Source: an uncultured Gemmatimonadota bacterium (lineage in GTDB: Bacteria > Gemmatimonadota > Gemmatimonadetes > Gemmatimonadales > Gemmatimonadaceae). Taken from it: DNA of 7,244 bases. Below are positions 335-7,244 of this stretch, piece after piece. The stretch's first letter is position 1. The number at the start of each line of letters is the position of its first letter. A program made the translations under genes and the position numbers. The notes under the pieces were generated by a model. The model was not told where the DNA came from. It did not search any database and worked only from the letters and a program-made list of their open reading frames with translations. The DNA lies in the NCBI GenBank assembly GCA_946479015.1, contig CAMLEQ010000192.1, positions 1 to 7,244 of the forward strand, written 5' to 3'.

Positions 335-1794
335 ACGCGCTTGCGCATGCGCGCCGAGAGCACGCCGAGCTGGTCGCGGTACTTGGCCACCGTGCGCCGC
401 GCGATCTGCACGCCGCTCTCCTTCAGGATGTTCACGATCGCCTGGTCGGTGAGCGGATGGCGCGCGTCCTCCTCGGACACGAGCTTCTGGATCTGCGCCT
501 TGATCCCGCGCGCGGACACGTCCTCGCCGCCGGTGGTCGAGAGCCCCGACGAGAAGAAGAACTTGAGCGGGAGCACGCCGCGGGGCGTCTGGACGAACTT
601 CTCGTTCGTCACGCGGCTCACCGTGGACTCGTGCATGTTGATCACCTCGGCCACCTCGCGCAGCGTGAGCGGCTTGAGGAACTGCACGCCCTTCTCGAAG
701 AAGTCGCGCTGCCGGTCCACGATGAAGTTCATCACCTTGAGCATCGTCTGCCGCCGCTGCTCGATCGCCTGGATCATCCAGTTGGCGGAGTTGAGCTTGT
801 TGGAGATGAACTCCTTGTTCTCGCCGTCGAACTTCTTCTTGTCGCGCGCGATCTCCTGGTACGCCCGCGAGAGCTTGAGGCGCGGCAGGTTCGCGTCGTT
901 CAGGAAGATGTGGTACTTGCCATCGATCTTCTCGACGATGAGGTCGGGGATGATGTAGTTGTCCCCGGCGTCGCTGTAGATGAGGCCGGGCTTGGGATCG
1001 AGCTTGGCGATCTCGTCGGCCGCCTTCTGCACGTCGCCCGGGCTGATGCCGAAGCGCTTCGAGATCTCGCTCCACCGATGATTGATCAGCTCGTCGAAGC
1101 AGTCGCGGACGAGGCGGAACGGCACCGATTGCTCGAGCCCCGCCTCGCGGAGCTGCAGCAGGAGGCACTCGCGCAGGTCGCGCGCGCCGACCCCCGGGGG
1201 ATCGAGGCTCTGGACGATGCGCAGCATCTCGTCGATCTCGCGCTCGGTGTAGAGCGGCACCTCCTCCTCATCGCGGCCCGCGGCTTCGGCGTGGCCGAGG
1301 AGCAGGTCGTTCACCCCCGTCCGGATCTCCTCGAGCGAGCAGGAGAGATAGCCGTCCTCGTTGATGTTGCCGATGAACTCGTCGGCGAGGAGCATCTGGC
1401 GGGGGTCGAGGTCGAGCAGCGTGACCTGGTCGCGCAGGTGGTCCCCGAGGTCGCGGGTGTCCACCGTGACGGGCTCGAAGTACTCCTTCTCCTCGTGCTC
1501 CTCCGGGCGCCCGCCCGCGTCGAAGCCGTTGAGGAGGATCTCCTCCCAGTCGATCTCATCCGCGTTCTGCTTCTCCTGCTCCTCGGCCGCGGTCTCCCCC
1601 TCCGCGGCCGCCTCCTCGTCTTCCTCCTCCTCCGGCTCGACCATCTCGAGGAAGGGGTTGTTGAGCAGCTCCTGCTTCAGGTGCTGCTGGAGGTCGAGCA
1701 GGGGCATGTACAGGAGATCCATCGCCTGGTACAGGCGTGGATTGATCTTGATCTCCTGCTTGAGCTGCGTGCTCTGGCTGATCCCGGCTTTCAT
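331..1794 (-). CDS. rpoN: RNA polymerase sigma-54 factor RpoN
   Basis: RpoN directs RNA polymerase to -24/-12 promoters and needs AAA+ activators to open them. The 487-residue length is normal for the family. Region I (1-50) is the activator-interacting region, with [27 protein letters not shown] and ending NNPFLE. Residues 51-105 form a very acidic region II (runs of Glu/Asp, then DEIDWEEIL). The core-binding region (about 115-310) has [20 protein letters not shown] (196-215) and LDPKPG (265-270). The helix-turn-helix region (about 376-415) has [20 protein letters not shown] and the family sequence [15 protein letters not shown] (403-417). The RpoN box ARRTVAKYR (465-473), which reads the -24 element, is intact. 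The ATG at 1794 overlaps the lptB stop by 4 nt (ATGA) with a weak GGGTGA upstream. rpoN after lptB is conserved in many Gram-negative bacteria; no sigma-54 activator is visible here. Confidence 0.97.
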
Positions 1795-3053
1795 GACACG
1801 TCACCCGGCGTCGAATCGGACTCGCCCTGGTCCACGCGGGCGAAGCGGGCGCGCAGTCGTGCCGCGAGCGTCGGGCCGAGGTAGATCCTCGCCACCGTGT
1901 CGTCGAACACGAGCTCGCGCACGGTGCCCGAGACCTTCACCTGCCCATCGAACATGATGTAGGCGCGGTCCACGATGTCCAGAGTCTGCTCCACGTTATG
2001 GTCGCTGATGAGCACCCCGATGCCCCGATGCCGGAGCCCCGCCACGATGGTCTGGATGTCGTGCACCGCGATCGGATCCACGCCGGCGAACGGCTCGTCG
2101 AGCATCATGAACTTCGGCTCCGTCACGAGCGCGCGCGTGATCTCGAGCCGACGCCGCTCCCCGCCGGAAAGCGAGTAGGCCTTGCTGTCCCTGAGGTGCT
2201 TGATGCTCAGCTCATCCAGCAGGCGGTCGAGCCGCTGCTGCCGCTCCTCCGCCGAGAGCTTCATGGTCTCCAGGATCGCGAGGATGTTCTCCGCGACCGT
2301 GAGCTTCCGGAAGATCGACGGCTCCTGCGAGAGGTACCCGATCCCGAGCCTGGCCCGCCGGTACATGGGCATCTCGGTGATGTCCTGGTTGTCGAGCAGG
2401 ATCCGCCCCTCCTGCGGCTGGATGAGACCGACGATCATGTAGAAGGTGGTCGTCTTGCCGGCGCCGTTGGGGCCCAGAAGGCCGACGATCTCCCCCTGTT
2501 GCAAGCGAAGGGCCACGTCGTTGACCACGCTGCGCCGCCGGTAGGTCTTGAGCAGTCCGACGGCTTCCAGCACGCTCCCGGCCGCCGCTGGCTTCGGCGC
2601 GCCGCCGTCTCCTCCCTTCCGGACCGCGGCGTGCTCACCGGTGTAGCGGAGCACGTCGGACATCTCCGTGCGCCGCATGGCGGCGCGGAACGGCTCGAGC
2701 GCCTTCCAGTACCGGTCCGCGATGCGGATGACGCCATCCGGCGAATCGAGGCCGCCTGGAGGGAGGATGATCATCCCCTCGTCGACGAAGCGGGGGAACA
2801 CGGCCTTGGCCAGGTGCGCGCGCACCTCGTCGAGACTCAGCCGGCCGGACTCCCGCTCGGAGTCGCCCCCCTCCTGGCGCACCATCTCGAGGTGGTCGTT
2901 GCGGTAGTGAATGGCGGCGTCGTTGAACACGACCTCGCCGCCATCGCGCGCGACGCACACGAGCGAGTGGAGGGCGAGCGCGGTGGAGCGATCGCCCCGC
3001 GCCTTCTGGTCGATGAACCGCTCGACTTCGGGGGGCAGCTGGAAATCGCTCAC
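1791..3053 (-). CDS. lptB: LPS export ABC transporter ATPase LptB with N-terminal extension
   Basis: LptB is the cytoplasmic ATPase that, as a dimer with LptF and LptG, powers extraction of LPS from the inner membrane. The 420-residue product has two parts. Residues about 160-395 are a complete LptB-type ATPase: Walker [10 protein letters not shown] (194-202), Q-loop [14 protein letters not shown] (240-253), signature LSGGE (295-299), Walker B FMMLDEP (315-321), H-loop His352 within the LptB-typical SDHNVEQTL, and IYLG near the end (390-393). Residues 1-137 are an unrecognised region joined by a Gly/Ala/Pro/Lys linker (about 138-160); E. coli LptB is only about 241 residues. A tail of about 25 residues after IYLG is also extra. 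The GTG start at 3053 overlaps the lptA stop (GTGA) and follows GGAGAGG at 5 nt. ATG at 2663 (Met131) could yield a shorter protein, but would leave about 390 bases without a gene. No LptF or LptG gene is in the window. Confidence 0.94.
2577..3053 (-). other. N-terminal region of LptB, unrecognised domain
   Basis: This part encodes residues 1-159 of the LptB product, ahead of the ATPase. I do not recognise a family. It is probably soluble: there are no membrane segments and no signal peptide. Secondary structure looks mixed, with an opening helix ([16 protein letters not shown]), a strand-rich part ([24 protein letters not shown]), a helix ([21 protein letters not shown]), strands around MIILPPGG and GVIRIADRY, then a helix ([20 protein letters not shown]). 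The patterned hydrophobics and charged linker look like real protein rather than a mis-called frame. A regulatory or partner-binding role is possible, but nothing in the sequence names it. Confidence 0.7.
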
Positions 3054-4594
3054 GTCGTCCTCTCCGGCGGCGCGGTGGTGTCGGTGGGCGCCTTCGCGGG
3101 AGGCGCGGCGGGTTGGGCGCCGCGCGTGGTCGCCGGGGAAGCGCCCCGCCGCGGGCGGCGCGGGCGCGCCGGCGCGGCATTCGCCGGCGTGGCGGGGGCG
3201 CCGGTGGTGTCCGTCGCGCCGGGCACCGACGGATCGAGGTACACGCCCGCGGACTGCCCCGCGATCGCCACCTGCTGCACCTGGCGGTTCTCGAAGGTGA
3301 CGGTGATCCGCTCCCCGCGCACGTAGTTCACCGCGGGCCCGATGGCGGCGGTGTCCTTGGCGGCGAGCTGGTAGAACGAGCGCGCGTGCCCCAGCGACCG
3401 AAGCTCGGTGATGCGCGGCTGGCGGCTCGAGTCGGCGGGCGCGCCCGTCCCGCGGCCCGCGGCGGCGCGGACGCTGTCGGCGCGCGCCGCGCTGTCCGCG
3501 CGCGTGCTGTCGAAGTACGCGTACACCGTGTCGCCGCGCAGCCAGTCGTGCTCGGTGGTGTGGATCTTGGTGGTGTCCGGAACGCTCTGGGCGAAGGCAT
3601 CGCGCAGCGCGCGGATCTCGCGCAGCCGCTGCTCCGGCATGCGGACGTCGAGCGAGTCGGCGACGATGTCGTACGTGGGATTGGTGGCCCGGGCGCGCGA
3701 CTTCCCCCACGCGTGCACGCGCTGCAGCCGCCCGCCCGCCATGGCGAAATCGAGGGTGTCGGCGGTGAGGGTGGCGTCCTGGCTCACCCCTTTCGCCTTC
3801 CCCTGCGAGAGCACACGCTCGAGCGCGCGGCTCCGGCCGTACAGATCGATGACCTGGCCGGTGAGCGTGAACGGCCGGTCGCCGCGCGCGGTGATGCTCG
3901 GCGACCGCACGAGCCGCGCGAACTCGCGCCCGCTGTCCAGCCACGCCGAGTCGCTGTGGGCGAGCACGTCGGTCCGCGTGATGTCCACCTTGCCGGAGGC
4001 GAACACCAGGCTGTCGCCGTGCATGGTCACGACGTTGGCGACCACGGTCATCGGCTCCGCCGGCTTGCCGGAGGAATCGGCTTCCACCACCCGGATCGTG
4101 GGCCGTCCGGGCGCGGTCATGCTCTGCTCCGGGCGGATCCCGGGGGCGGCGCGCAGGTACTGGATGTGCGGCCCGTCGAGCGTGGTGCCGCTCGGGAGCC
4201 GGGCGTGCACGCGCCCGTCGGCCTCGAGCCGCTCCTCGGCCATGAAGTAGTCGGCGAGGTCCGAGTCGAGGGTGAGCCGCGGCTCGGTGTAATGCACGTT
4301 CCCGATGAGGTGCAGCAATCGCCGGTCGCCGTAGTACTCCGCGCTGTCGGCGATGAGCGTCATGCTCTGCGCGGGGCAGCGCGCGATCACCCCGCCCCCG
4401 ACGAAGCTGTTGTACTGCCCGCTCGGCTGGCGCACCGAGTTGACCCGCGGCGGGCTGGTGGTGTTGCGGGCGGAGAACTGCAGCTGGCACTGCCCGCCCG
4501 GCGCCGCCGGGCGCTGCTGGGCGCGCGCGTTCCGCGCCGCGAGCGGCACGAGCGCGAGCACCACGCCGGCGACGAGCGCGATCGGGCGCCGCAT
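3050..4594 (-). CDS. lptA: Large OstA-like periplasmic LPS transport protein (LptA)
   Basis: LptA-type proteins bridge the periplasm and carry LPS from LptC to LptD. This one has 514 residues against about 185 in E. coli. Residues 1-25 are a signal peptide with an ARA cleavage site, predicting a periplasmic protein. The body (about 60-450) has at least five OstA-like repeats of the form A-D-S/T-x-x followed by R-L-x-x-V/I-x-A-x-G, for example [11 protein letters not shown] (78-88), [22 protein letters not shown] (277-298, with an inner gap in conservation) and [17 protein letters not shown] (311-327). It has only two cysteines, Cys36 and Cys73, a possible disulfide. Residues 455-514 are a basic tail rich in Pro, Ala, Thr and Arg, probably unstructured. 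The ATG at 4594 touches the lptC stop (TGATG); the preceding GTG (4597) would add one residue and a 4-nt overlap. Such long OstA proteins also occur in Bacteroidetes; a non-Lpt OstA role is possible but unlikely beside lptB and lptC. Confidence 0.86.
3059..3065 (-). promoter_or_regulatory. Ribosome binding site of lptB
   Basis: GGAGAGG lies in the last codons of lptA, 5 nt before the GTG at 3053. It supports translation of the N-terminal extension, and so the fused reading of lptB, rather than a start at the internal ATG 2663. Confidence 0.7.
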
Positions 4595-5151
4595 CACGGC
4601 TTCTGCCCCGGCAGGGTGAACGTCCCGCCGCCCGTGATCACCTGCTTCACCTGCAGGTTGTGCAGGTCGGGATCGGAGATGAACCCGATCCCGTGGAGCA
4701 CGCCCGTGGGCTGGGTGAGCACGAACGCGCTGTCGCTGCTGATCTGATTCACCCCCTGCAGGTAGCGCAGCTGCTCCGTCTCGAGGCGCCGCCCGTCGGT
4801 GGTCACCACCACCACGTTCTTGCGCGCGATCATCTCCCCGCGCGGCATGGCGTACGTGCCCTCGCGCGACGTCAGCACGGCGTTCTGCTGGCCCGTGCTC
4901 GTGTAGAAGTTCGTCCGCTCGTTGCGCACCTCGATGCGCGTGCTTCCGTCGAAGAAGTACGCGGTGTCGGCGTGCAGCTGCGCGCGGAGCACCCCCTGGT
5001 TCGTGATGAGCGTGGTGATGCCGAACATCACCTGGTCCGCGGTGTCGGCGAGCGGGTTGGCGGGCGCGGGCTTGGGCTCGGTGCCGCTGCCGCAGGCGCC
5101 GAGGGCCGCCGCGGCGGCGAGCGCGAGCACGGCGATCGCGCGCCGCCTCAC
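4594..5151 (-). CDS. lptC: LPS export protein LptC, predicted lipoprotein
   Basis: LptC sits on the periplasmic side of the inner membrane, bound to the LptB2FG transporter, and hands LPS to LptA. The protein has 185 residues, close to the E. coli length of about 190. Residues 1-19 are a signal sequence (three Arg, then an Ala/Leu-rich core) ending in a lipobox, L17-G18-A19-C20, so Cys20 is probably lipidated. In E. coli LptC is instead held by a single transmembrane helix. After a short linker ([13 protein letters not shown]), residues 40-175 form an LptC/OstA-like beta-strand fold with [36 protein letters not shown] and [20 protein letters not shown]. Gly at +2 after the Cys lacks the Asp that signals inner-membrane retention in E. 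coli; sorting rules may differ here. The GTG start at 5151 overlaps the kdsD stop (GTGA); a weak GGGGTG lies just upstream. Confidence 0.9.
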
Positions 5152-6110: not shown

Positions 6111-6682
6111 CGCAGCACCTCCAGCGAGGCTCCGGTCCGTTCGGCCACGTATCCCTCGGTCACCGCGCTCCACTCGCCGCGCGCCTTCAGCAGCAGCTCG
6201 GTGAACTCCCGCACCGCGCCGCGCCCCCCGTGGCGCTCGAGCTGGAGCCGGCACGCGTCGCGAATCTCGGGGACGGCGTTTCCCACCGCCACCGGGAGAC
6301 CGACGACGCGGAGCACGGCGAGATCGGGGAAGTCGTCGCCGATGAACGCCGCCTCTCCCGGCGCCACGCCGTGCCGCTCGAGGATGCGGCGGAACGCGGG
6401 CAGCTTGCGCGCGTGCGCGTCCTGCACCAGGTCATCCACCTCGAGCTCCGCGGCGCGGATGCGCACGCTCTCGGACACGCGCCCGGTGACGATCACCACC
6501 TTGATCGCGGCGGCGCGCAGGAATCGCACGGCGAGCCCGTCCTGGATGTCGTAGCGCTTGAGCTCCATCGGCGCGCCCGCGACGTCGCCGAGGTAGATGC
6601 CGCCGTCGGTGAGCACGCCGTCCACGTCGAGCCCGACGAGCCGGATGCCGCGGGCGAGCGCCGGCTCGATCACCGGCGGCAC
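6107..6682 (-). CDS. kdsC: Kdo-8-phosphate phosphatase (HAD superfamily, KdsC)
   Basis: KdsC hydrolyses Kdo 8-phosphate to Kdo and phosphate in the cytoplasm, the step after KdsA. It is a compact cap-less HAD phosphatase (C0 type). Counting from the GTG at 6673 (188 residues, the length of E. coli KdsC), motif I is DVDGVLTD (16-23, nucleophile Asp16 and acid/base Asp18), motif II is IVTGR (61-65), the Lys is at 90 and motif III is GDDFPD (112-117). The C-terminal tail has GGRGAVRE (149-156), a KdsC hallmark reaching into the neighbouring subunit's active site in this tetrameric family. Two starts are possible. GTG 6682 has a strong GGAGGTG at 6691-6697 with 8-nt spacing and gives 191 residues and a 13-nt overlap with kdsA; I prefer it. 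GTG 6673 gives the 4-nt GTGA overlap seen at other junctions. The stop overlaps kdsD by 4 nt. Confidence 0.95.
6117..6122 (-). promoter_or_regulatory. Ribosome binding site of kdsD
   Basis: GGAGGT lies within the end of kdsC, 6 nt before the ATG at 6110. It fixes that ATG as the kdsD start rather than any codon in the open frame extending further upstream. Confidence 0.75.
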
Positions 6683-7244
6683 GTGCGCCACACCTCCACC
6701 AGCCGCTCCACCAGCGCGTCGAGCTGGTGCAGCGGGATCATGTTGGGCCCATCGCTCGGGGCGTGGTCGGGGTCGGGGTGCGTCTCCATGAACAGCCCGT
6801 CCGCCCCCGCGGCCACGGCGGCGAGCGCAAGCGGCGGGATGAACTCCCGCGCCCCCCCGCTCGCGCCTCCCGCACCGAGTCCCGGGCGCTGCACGCTGTG
6901 GGTGGCGTCGAACACCACCGGCACGCCGCAGGCCTCGCGCATGCGCGCGAACGACCGCATGTCCACCACGAGGTCGCCGTAGCCGAAGAAGGTGCCGCGT
7001 TCGGTGACGGCGATCTCGCGGGAAGCGGGAAGCGGGAAGCGGGAAGCGATGTCGGGAGCAGGTACGCCTCCCGCTTCCCGCTTCCCCCTTCCCGCTTCCC
7101 GGACTTTCTCCACCGCCCCGCGCATCCCCTCCGGATGCATCCACTGCCCCTTCTTGATGTTCACCGGCTTCCCCGTCGCGCCGGCGGCGACGAGCAGGTC
7201 GGTCTGGCGGCAGAGGAACGCCGGGATCTGGAGCACGTCCACCA
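6670..7244 (-). CDS. kdsA: 3-deoxy-8-phosphooctulonate synthase (Kdo-8-P synthase), 3' part
   Basis: KdsA condenses phosphoenolpyruvate with arabinose 5-phosphate to give Kdo 8-phosphate in the cytoplasm, the committed step of Kdo synthesis. The gene enters from beyond base 7244; the first whole codon is at 7242 and 190 codons remain, about the last two thirds of a normal enzyme. Visible family motifs, numbered from that codon, are [17 protein letters not shown] (1-17), the substrate-binding NIKKGQW (28-34), [16 protein letters not shown] (81-96), [11 protein letters not shown] (111-121) and [20 protein letters not shown] (152-171). The His, Glu and Asp used as metal ligands in metal-dependent KdsA are present, but the deciding N-terminal Cys/Asn lies outside the window, so the class is open. 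Residues 52-76 replace what is normally about a three-residue loop and are encoded by a palindromic repeat. The TGA stop at 6672-6670 overlaps the start region of kdsC. Confidence 0.95.
6691..6697 (-). promoter_or_regulatory. Ribosome binding site of kdsC
   Basis: GGAGGTG on the minus strand, a full match to the common anti-Shine-Dalgarno sequence, lies 8 nt before GTG 6682 and 17 nt before GTG 6673. It supports the upstream start of kdsC. It sits inside the kdsA codons for VEVW, so chance cannot be excluded. Confidence 0.55.
7015..7089 (-). other. In-frame insert in the KdsA loop before the VTERG strand
   Basis: These 25 codons (RGKREAG through PLPASRE) separate VREAG from IAVTERG. In E. 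coli KdsA, as I remember it, the equivalent stretch runs KEGG-NDK-VILCDRG, so only about three residues are expected here; the net gain is about 22 residues (66 nt). The segment is rich in Arg, Gly, Pro and Ser and is translated almost wholly from the palindromic repeat. In the TIM barrel it falls in a helix-to-strand connection, on the face opposite the active site, where an insert could be tolerated. The exact ends of the insertion need an alignment to close relatives. Confidence 0.8.
7019..7101. repeat. Inverted array of 7-bp repeats (hairpin element) inside kdsA
   Basis: On the plus strand, four perfect tandem CGGGAAG units (7019-7046) face four CTTCCCG units (7074-7101), the second of which is CTTCCCC (mismatch at 7087). 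The two 28-nt arms are complementary apart from that base. The 27-nt spacer holds a second, inner inverted repeat, CGGGAG (7053-7058) and CTCCCG (7068-7073), around a 9-nt loop. The inner right arm abuts the outer right arm, while six bases (7047-7052) are unpaired on the left. The element is read in frame as part of kdsA and also forms a strong hairpin in its mRNA. It resembles a mobile palindromic element, or an expanded repeat, rather than ordinary coding sequence. Confidence 0.93.

What the first reader, a model, noticed from the sequence alone, without database searches (positions are those of the whole stretch)
7019..7101. Palindromic 7-bp repeat array inserted in a conserved metabolic gene
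Four CGGGAAG units face four inverted copies across a 27-nt spacer that itself holds a smaller inverted repeat, so the whole element is a nested hairpin. It sits inside the coding sequence of kdsA without breaking the frame. Rickettsia palindromic elements are a known precedent for palindromes that spread into coding genes in frame; I know of no named family with this unit. The flanking codons for VREAG are CGG GAA GCG GG, which already contain one repeat unit, so the element may have been seeded by, or targeted to, a matching host sequence.
Basis: partly seen in the sequence, partly recalled or inferred. Interest (0 to 1): 0.75.

Follow-up and report, generated by a model that had tools for sequence, protein, structure and literature searches.

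The report
Shape-shifting seven-letter DNA hairpin in gene
A DNA hairpin made of seven-letter repeats sits in frame in a loop of a conserved sugar-synthesis gene of an uncultured bacterium; some relatives appear to carry hairpins of the same design but other repeat words at the same spot, and between genes, probably because DNA copying itself grows and mirror-copies them.

Summary
The array is real: (CGGGAAG)4, a 27-nt spacer and four CTTCCCG copies (one with a mismatch), 7019-7101, in frame in a KdsA loop predicted to be disordered. It is one case of a wider phenomenon. Several Gemmatimonadota relatives carry period-7 arrays, mostly intergenic; neighbouring opposite-strand arrays are G-rich first in 26 of 26 pairs. 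At the same KdsA loop, relatives' peptides read as other heptamers, and the two arms match each other beyond chance (21 of 102 loops score 15 or more; 2.7 expected from swapped halves; 0 shuffled). Between two sister genomes, palindromes changed unit at three orthologous sites and one had its inner part inverted. RAYT and reverse-transcriptase domains were not found in most of 18 repeat-rich genomes. Best reading: slippage grows heptamers and template switching copies one arm onto the other; kdsA tolerates it where the loop is unstructured and the frame is kept. Inverted heptamer pairs are known from Xanthomonas (PMC4692102). The in-gene hotspot with arm-coordinated unit change is, as far as my few searches show, a new variant. 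Copying between loci is not excluded.

The parts
7019..7046 (+). G-rich arm, (CGGGAAG)4
7047..7073 (.). 27-nt spacer with a nested inverted repeat CGGGAG (7053-7058) / CTCCCG (7068-7073)
7074..7101 (+). C-rich arm, CTTCCCG CTTCCCC CTTCCCG CTTCCCG (one mismatch)
7020..7043 (+). canonical G-quadruplex motif GGGAAGC x3 GGG in the left arm
7077..7100 (-). canonical G-quadruplex motif in the right arm, other strand
6670..7242 (-). kdsA (3-deoxy-8-phosphooctulonate synthase), C-terminal 190 aa, start beyond the window; the element lies in the loop between a helix and a strand

Best explanation
The element is a heptamer-repeat palindrome produced and maintained by DNA replication errors rather than by a dedicated transposase. 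Step 1 (inferred): a GG-containing 7-nt word expands by slippage. Step 2 (inferred; its two signatures, arm matching and spacer inversion, are seen): the polymerase switches template at the hairpin and copies one arm onto the other, which makes the array palindromic, keeps both arms on the same unit and sometimes inverts the spacer. Step 3 (inferred; possible intermediates seen): single-base variants spread through an arm by slippage and then to the other arm, so the unit changes in place between close relatives. Step 4 (loop shown by prediction only, tolerance inferred): in kdsA the element survives because it falls in a disordered loop and its total length and units keep the frame open. The G-rich-first polarity suggests that the strand that folds back is the G-rich nascent strand; this is inferred.
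For: Period-7 arrays dominate: 30 in 512 kb of G212, against 0-5 for each other period from 4 to 16 except 25 at the harmonic 14; none of period 7 in 340 kb sampled from two other genomes of the same family, G021 and G076. A reverse-complement partner of 11 nt or more lies within 150 nt of 11 of 45 arrays in four genomes, 0 of 225 in random flanks. Polarity: 26 of 33 neighbouring array pairs are G-rich then C-rich, 0 the reverse; the other 7 are same-strand or ambiguous. Such a partner lies on the 3' side of 57 of 117 arrays and on the 5' side of 0; at 8 nt or more, 74 against 1 (both arms of a pair count). KdsA loops: arms match within the protein, own score 10.28 against a maximum of 9.70 in 2000 permutations; 21 of 102 at 15 or more against 2.7 expected from swaps and 0 shuffled; of these 20 G-first, 0 C-first, 1 neutral. 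Loops read as half-converted: P0005, left arm GGGAAGC, right arm GGGAATC (my reading). Unit switches between G220 and G171 at three orthologous sites. One inner segment inverted, 80 of 82 bases identical in the inverted alignment, the signature named in the abstract of PMC8604942. No PF01797 in 15 of 18 and no RVT_1 in 14 of 18 repeat-rich genomes. Loop 155-173 predicted with pLDDT under 50.
Against: Within one genome many loci share the same few units, and in G220/G171 also outer ends, which slippage at separate loci does not predict. Within that class (15 elements) arms match their own partner only slightly better than others' (28.2 against 27.0 of 35; 232 of 20000 permutations as high). Across DNA elements of a genome the own partner scores higher on average (for example 19.1 against 11.2 in G212, much of it class), but it ranks best for only 2 of 9 elements in G212, 1 of 7 in G220, 3 of 3 in G171 and 2 of 5 in G262. 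In the KdsA test the mean percentile rank of own halves is 0.42 where 0.5 is chance: the excess lies in a minority of loops. The wobble account of stem asymmetry in PMC8794818 (passages) predicts T over A as well as G over C in the 5' arm; T and A are equal here. Nothing here explains why the period is seven. Some orthologous elements are unchanged (G220 C24 near 4286).
Confidence: 0.5

Rival explanations
1. A mobile palindromic repeat family (REP-, MITE- or RPE-like) moved by an unidentified transposase inserts repeatedly at the kdsA loop and between genes, with different subfamilies in different lineages.
For: Many dispersed copies per genome: pattern GGGAANN x3 has 249 overlapping matches in G273 and 183 in G262; TTGGTNN x3 has 191 in G212. 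Shared outer ends in the TTGGTCR class. Presence/absence difference at one G220/G171 site.
Against: Spacers differ between the 13 G220/G171 loci of this class printed; PF01797 in only 3 of 18 repeat-rich genomes against 1 of 12 others; unit switching at orthologous sites. No target-site duplication was looked for. Other transposase families were not searched. Apparent 2-nt empty sites in G171 were assembly gaps.
Confidence: 0.25
2. The hairpins are kept by selection for a function in DNA or RNA, such as transcript 3' ends or G-quadruplex switches; arm matching reflects compensatory change.
For: 98 of 120 arrays are intergenic although 85-92% of the DNA is called coding; arm length peaks at 3-4 whole units, four being enough for a G-quadruplex, as Rehm et al. 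stress for Xanthomonas.
Against: Changing all units of both arms together by point mutation and selection is unlikely (inference); the kdsA copy is inside a coding loop; many units have only GG. Rehm et al. could not identify a regulatory role.
Confidence: 0.13
3. A telomerase-like reverse transcriptase adds G-rich heptamers to broken ends, which are then joined head to head, giving the G-first polarity.
For: The polarity equals that of fused telomeres (recalled); G212 has TTAGGGG-like units.
Against: RVT_1 found in only 4 of 18 repeat-rich genomes and 2 of 12 others; several unit classes per genome.
Confidence: 0.04
4. Assembly or binning artefact, or contamination.
For: The organism is known from a metagenome bin; its own KdsA (P0001, 99% over the whole query) is probably the same record.
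Against: Proteins predicted from several other sources, and DNA of G212, G211, G266 and G273, show comparable inserts at the same site.
Confidence: 0.02

Closest known systems
GGGNATC heptameric repeats of Xanthomonas and Nostoc (Rehm et al. 2015, PMC4692102; parts 1 and 5 of 8 and passages read)
   Same: 7-nt G-rich units, preference for about four copies, mostly intergenic, dispersed, convergent inverted pairs (70 in Xcc, 75 in Xac), G-quadruplex potential
   Different: Here several unit classes per genome and clade, an in-frame hotspot inside kdsA, unit change at orthologous sites with arms changing together, one inverted inner segment
Tandem heptamer repeats as the most abundant intergenic repeats of many prokaryotes (SPADE, PMC6344855, passages read)
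   Same: period 7, wide distribution, function called unclear
   Different: No palindromic heptamers, polarity or turnover in the passages that I read
Template-switch evolution of inverted repeats (PMC8604942 abstract; PMC8794818 abstract and passages)
   Same: arm homogenisation and spacer inversion; G on the 5' side of stems
   Different: Described there for yeast genes and RNA stems, not heptamer arrays; T over A asymmetry absent here
Rickettsia palindromic elements (recalled; none of the 8 papers listed holds the term)
   Same: palindrome tolerated in frame in coding genes
   Different: No conserved element sequence seen here; unit differs between close relatives
REP/BIME elements mobilised by RAYT (recalled)
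   Same: short dispersed palindromes, mostly between genes
   Different: PF01797 not found in 15 of 18 repeat-rich genomes

Membership tests
GGGNATC-type heptameric repeats (Rehm et al.) | tandem 7-nt G-rich unit, about four copies | tested here: met
GGGNATC-type heptameric repeats (Rehm et al.) | unit sequence GGGNATC | tested here: not met
   unit is GGGAAGC, one base from GGGAATC
GGGNATC-type heptameric repeats (Rehm et al.) | under-represented in coding regions | tested here: inconclusive
   this copy lies inside kdsA, but in samples of five related genomes 98 of 120 arrays are intergenic
GGGNATC-type heptameric repeats (Rehm et al.) | convergent inverted pairs | tested here: met
   this element; in relatives 26 of 33 neighbour pairs convergent, 0 divergent
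Rickettsia palindromic elements | in-frame insertion into a coding gene (recalled) | tested here: met
Rickettsia palindromic elements | many copies sharing one element sequence (recalled) | tested here: not met
   in relatives the unit varies and the spacers read differ, although the TTGGTCR class of G220/G171 shares its arms; the window's own genome could not be tested
REP elements with RAYT | genome encodes a Y1 transposase of PF01797 (recalled) | tested here: not met
   3 of 18 repeat-rich and 1 of 12 other genomes; bins may be incomplete, window genome not held
Template-switched inverted repeats | arms homogenised with each other | tested here: met
   weak within one class and by rank
Template-switched inverted repeats | spacer inversion between relatives | tested here: met
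   one site; other sites were not tested for inversion
Reverse-transcriptase product | RVT_1 in the genome | tested here: not met
   4 of 18 repeat-rich, 2 of 12 others
Known structured RNA | Rfam match at gathering score | tested here: not met
   0 matches in the window and 7 element loci

The most novel reading that the evidence does not exclude
Bacterial tandem heptamers, called unexplained in 2018, are the visible product of one directional replication process: G-rich nascent heptamer arrays fold back and are copied into mirror arms, always G-rich first. The process rewrites the repeat word in place between close relatives and can be captured inside genes as a fast-evolving protein loop, as in kdsA.
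Probability: 0.33. Interest if true: 0.78.

Novelty: new variant of a known kind. Interest (0 to 1): 0.6.

Why it matters
Heptamer repeats are reported as the most abundant intergenic tandem repeats in a wide range of prokaryotes, with no clear clue to function (PMC6344855, passages). The kdsA loop and the orthologous G220/G171 sites give a natural series in which the surroundings hold still while unit, arm and spacer change, so slippage, arm conversion and polarity become directly testable. It also shows a route by which a non-coding repeat process may add rapidly changing peptide to an otherwise conserved enzyme.

Tried and rejected
RAYT transposase as driver: not supported, PF01797 in 3 of 18 repeat-rich genomes. 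Reverse transcriptase as driver: not supported, RVT_1 in 4 of 18. Known RNA family: none in the window and 7 loci. T-over-A asymmetry expected from the wobble template-switch model: absent, 12 elements T over A, 13 A over T, 1 tie. Apparent 2-nt empty sites in G171 are NN assembly gaps and were not counted. The first alignment of contig C24 to G171 used the wrong orientation (C24 part) and was redone. A score threshold of 10 in the KdsA arm test does not separate own from swapped halves (49 against 47.1 expected), so 13 or more was relied on. I first counted it as evidence that the units fitted to KdsA loops hold no stop codons; this is circular, because units with stops were left out of the fit and the loops come from open frames, so I dropped it. 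Paper searches, beyond the papers cited: Gemmatimonadota with palindromic repeats (14 listed, none opened), Gemmatimonas with tandem repeats and intergenic (none), heptamer terms, quasipalindrome, RPE.

Full report
Observation. The window holds (CGGGAAG)4 at 7019-7046, a 27-nt spacer with a nested CGGGAG/CTCCCG, and four inverted units at 7074-7101, the second of which is CTTCCCC. Both strands fold far better than 200 shuffles. Each arm is also a G-quadruplex motif. The element lies in the C-terminal 190 codons of kdsA on the minus strand and is read through in frame. The other genes in the window look like a lipopolysaccharide cluster: kdsC, kdsD, lptC, an unassigned ORF, lptB, rpoN and a glycosyltransferase fragment.

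The organism. No whole genome is held for the window. The nearest protein, P0001, is named as from a Gemmatimonadaceae bacterium and is 99% identical over the whole query; it is probably the same record, so it is not independent support. By score the nearest of the 200 phylum and 179 family genomes searched are G212, G211, G266 and G273, with kdsA 77-85% identical.

The kdsA site is a hotspot in one clade. In the 120 best-listed KdsA proteins the helix-to-strand loop could be cut out of 116, giving 102 unique loops of 10 to 50 residues, median 25, and many read as translations of different heptamers. In the DNA of the four nearest genomes the loop holds (CCACTCG)n in G212, (CGCGTCC)n in G211, a degenerate heptamer pair in G266 and a GGGAATC/GGGAACC-like pair in G273; G280 (L051) holds a run like CGCCCCA and G142 (L031) two degenerate heptamer words. 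By eye these are 6 of the 62 loci of other genomes whose loop was printed (30, 19 of 20 fetched); the other 56 are mostly shorter and show no clear heptamer array. Because a 7-nt unit gives a 7-residue cyclic peptide, I scored each loop against all heptamer necklaces without stops, asking the left half to fit a unit and the right half its reverse complement. Own halves score 10.28 on average, while the best of 2000 permutations of right halves reached 9.70; the mean percentile rank of own halves is 0.42, so the excess lies in a minority of loops. At a score of 15 or more there are 21 of 102 loops, against 2.7 expected from swapped halves and none after shuffling residues; at 13 or more there are 29, of which 28 are G-rich first, 0 C-rich first and 1 neutral. 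On a quick tree of 115 KdsA rows with the loop removed, 37 rows labelled with 10 units need at least 17 changes, where 9 is the least possible and shuffled labels average 24.4 (0 of 200 as low), so units are clustered by kinship yet change often. The tree is weak: 58 of 108 inner branches are open, 78 rows are unlabelled, and the well-supported branches alone force 3 changes for GGGAAGC, 2 for GGGAATC and 1 each for three other labels. In one shallow group GGGAAGC, GGGAATC, GGGAGAC and GGGAACA-type loops sit next to each other. P0005 and P0012 read as having arms one base apart, as half-converted elements would (my reading).

The same design in relatives' genomes. In 512 kb of G212 there are 30 period-7 arrays, 25 at the harmonic 14, and 0-5 at each other period from 4 to 16; G273 has 7, G142 5, G211 3 and G266 0 in smaller samples; G021 (200 kb) and G076 (140 kb) have none of period 7. 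The pattern GGGAANN x3 occurs in 36 of 177 genomes of the family, up to 249 matches, several per array, with few control matches in most genomes. TTGGTNN x3 occurs in 12 of 177, up to 191; there the reversed control pattern also matches in several genomes (for example 71 in G212), presumably through related units. With a lower threshold 131 arrays were found in 1.05 Mb of eight genomes; some of these regions were fetched because a pattern matched there, so densities for G220, G171, G273 and G262 are not unbiased. Of 33 neighbouring array pairs within 150 nt, 26 are G-rich then C-rich, 0 the reverse, 4 both G-rich, 1 both C-rich and 2 ambiguous. A reverse-complement partner of 11 nt or more lies 3' of 57 of 117 arrays and 5' of none; at 8 nt, 74 against 1; arrays with no clear G/C bias or short flanks were dropped, and both arms of a pair count. 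Of 120 arrays tested with a home-made gene caller, 98 are intergenic, 6 partly and 16 inside a called gene, several of these near a gene end or of low complexity, while 85-92% of the DNA is called coding. So the kdsA copy is an unusual one.

In other groups, three stretches in the species collection hold the exact G-first palindrome with this unit, in a Baikal Gemmatimonadetes bin, a Sulfuricella bin and Zobellella iuensis; the C-first pattern was not scanned there, so this says nothing on polarity. Of 8 Zobellella regions read, 6 hold a single array without a clear partner; no C-first pair was seen in the 12 regions of the three genomes.

Change between sister genomes. G220 and G171 are mostly 91-97% identical over the long contig matches compared (89% and 81% in single stretches). 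At G220 C35 16613 a CCGGAAG palindrome corresponds to a GGCAGAC palindrome in G171 with the same flanks on both sides. At C22 5494 and 8005, both inside one continuous 9.1-kb match, the classes also differ by my reading, TTGGTCR against GTTGGTG and GATGGAA against GGCRGAC; in the stretch shown one flank is close and the other diverged. At C22 12974 the class is kept but the inner part is inverted, 80 of 82 bases identical in the inverted alignment. Several other sites keep their class, and the element at C24 4286 is unchanged. At C35 10850 an array is present only in G171. Apparent empty sites with NN in G171 are assembly gaps and were not counted.

Mechanism. Arm homogenisation and spacer inversion are the two signatures of template switching between inverted repeats named in the abstract of PMC8604942. 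PMC8794818 (abstract and passages) adds that intrastrand switching could enrich G on the 5' side of stems, which fits the polarity, but also T over A, which is not seen here. A dedicated enzyme is not supported: PF01797 is in 3 of 18 repeat-rich and 1 of 12 other genomes, RVT_1 in 4 of 18 and 2 of 12; I picked these 30 genomes by the counts, their completeness is not given, and other transposases were not searched. Against a purely local process, the TTGGTCR elements of G220/G171 share outer ends, arms match their own partners only slightly better than those of other elements, and over all classes the own partner ranks best for only 8 of 24 elements (2 of 9, 1 of 7, 3 of 3, 2 of 5). Copying between loci therefore remains open.

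Why kdsA tolerates it. The best AlphaFold2 model of P0001 (45 sequences, mean pLDDT 86.3; the other four 69.1-84.9) has the insert, residues 155-173, below 50 between helix 136-150 and strand 176-180. The element must also keep the frame and hold no stop on the coding strand; half of all 7-nt words (1184 of 2344 necklaces) are stop-free on both strands, and 6 of 12 intergenic units tried are not. That the KdsA units are stop-free follows from how they were found and is not evidence.

Known or new. Rehm et al. 2015 (PMC4692102; parts 1 and 5 of 8 and passages) describe GGGAATC repeats with convergent inverted pairs in Xanthomonas; a passage reports the hypothesis that the heptamer size reflects the DNA segment at the polymerase active site. 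The SPADE paper (passages) calls tandem heptamers the most abundant intergenic repeats of a wide range of species, without a clear clue to function. I found no paper on heptamer palindromes in Gemmatimonadota or on the kdsA loop in the listings, which cover only open-licence papers. I file it as a new variant of a known kind.

Noticed in passing
window 1794-3050 (-): The lptB frame stays open upstream of the ABC part (residues 176-322 of the 419 codons from 3050), and the open frame runs on to 4490; an N-terminal extension of about 140 codons is possible but may be a chance open frame.
   Followed up: partly
window 3053-4597 (-): 515-codon ORF between lptC and lptB with no NCBIfam or Pfam match; by position perhaps an LptA/OstA-like protein.
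   Followed up: partly
L193:15517-15754 (G220 C35): A palindromic repeat of about 240 nt built of GGATGCN-like heptamers has dozens of partial matches in G171.
   Followed up: partly
L077:12733-13089 (G212): Long facing arrays of telomere-like heptamers, AGGGGTT and CCCTAGA/CCCTAGC, with arms of related but different units.
   Followed up: partly
L059:1659-1689 (G212 C3): A CACCAAT array lying well inside a called 1048-codon gene, a second candidate in-gene heptamer array.
   Followed up: no
L254, L257-L259 (Zobellella iuensis): Long single GGGAAGC/TGGAAGC arrays without a clear inverted partner, up to about 28 units by length in L254.
   Followed up: partly
window 5054-5076 (+): A further G-quadruplex motif near the start of lptC.
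   Followed up: no
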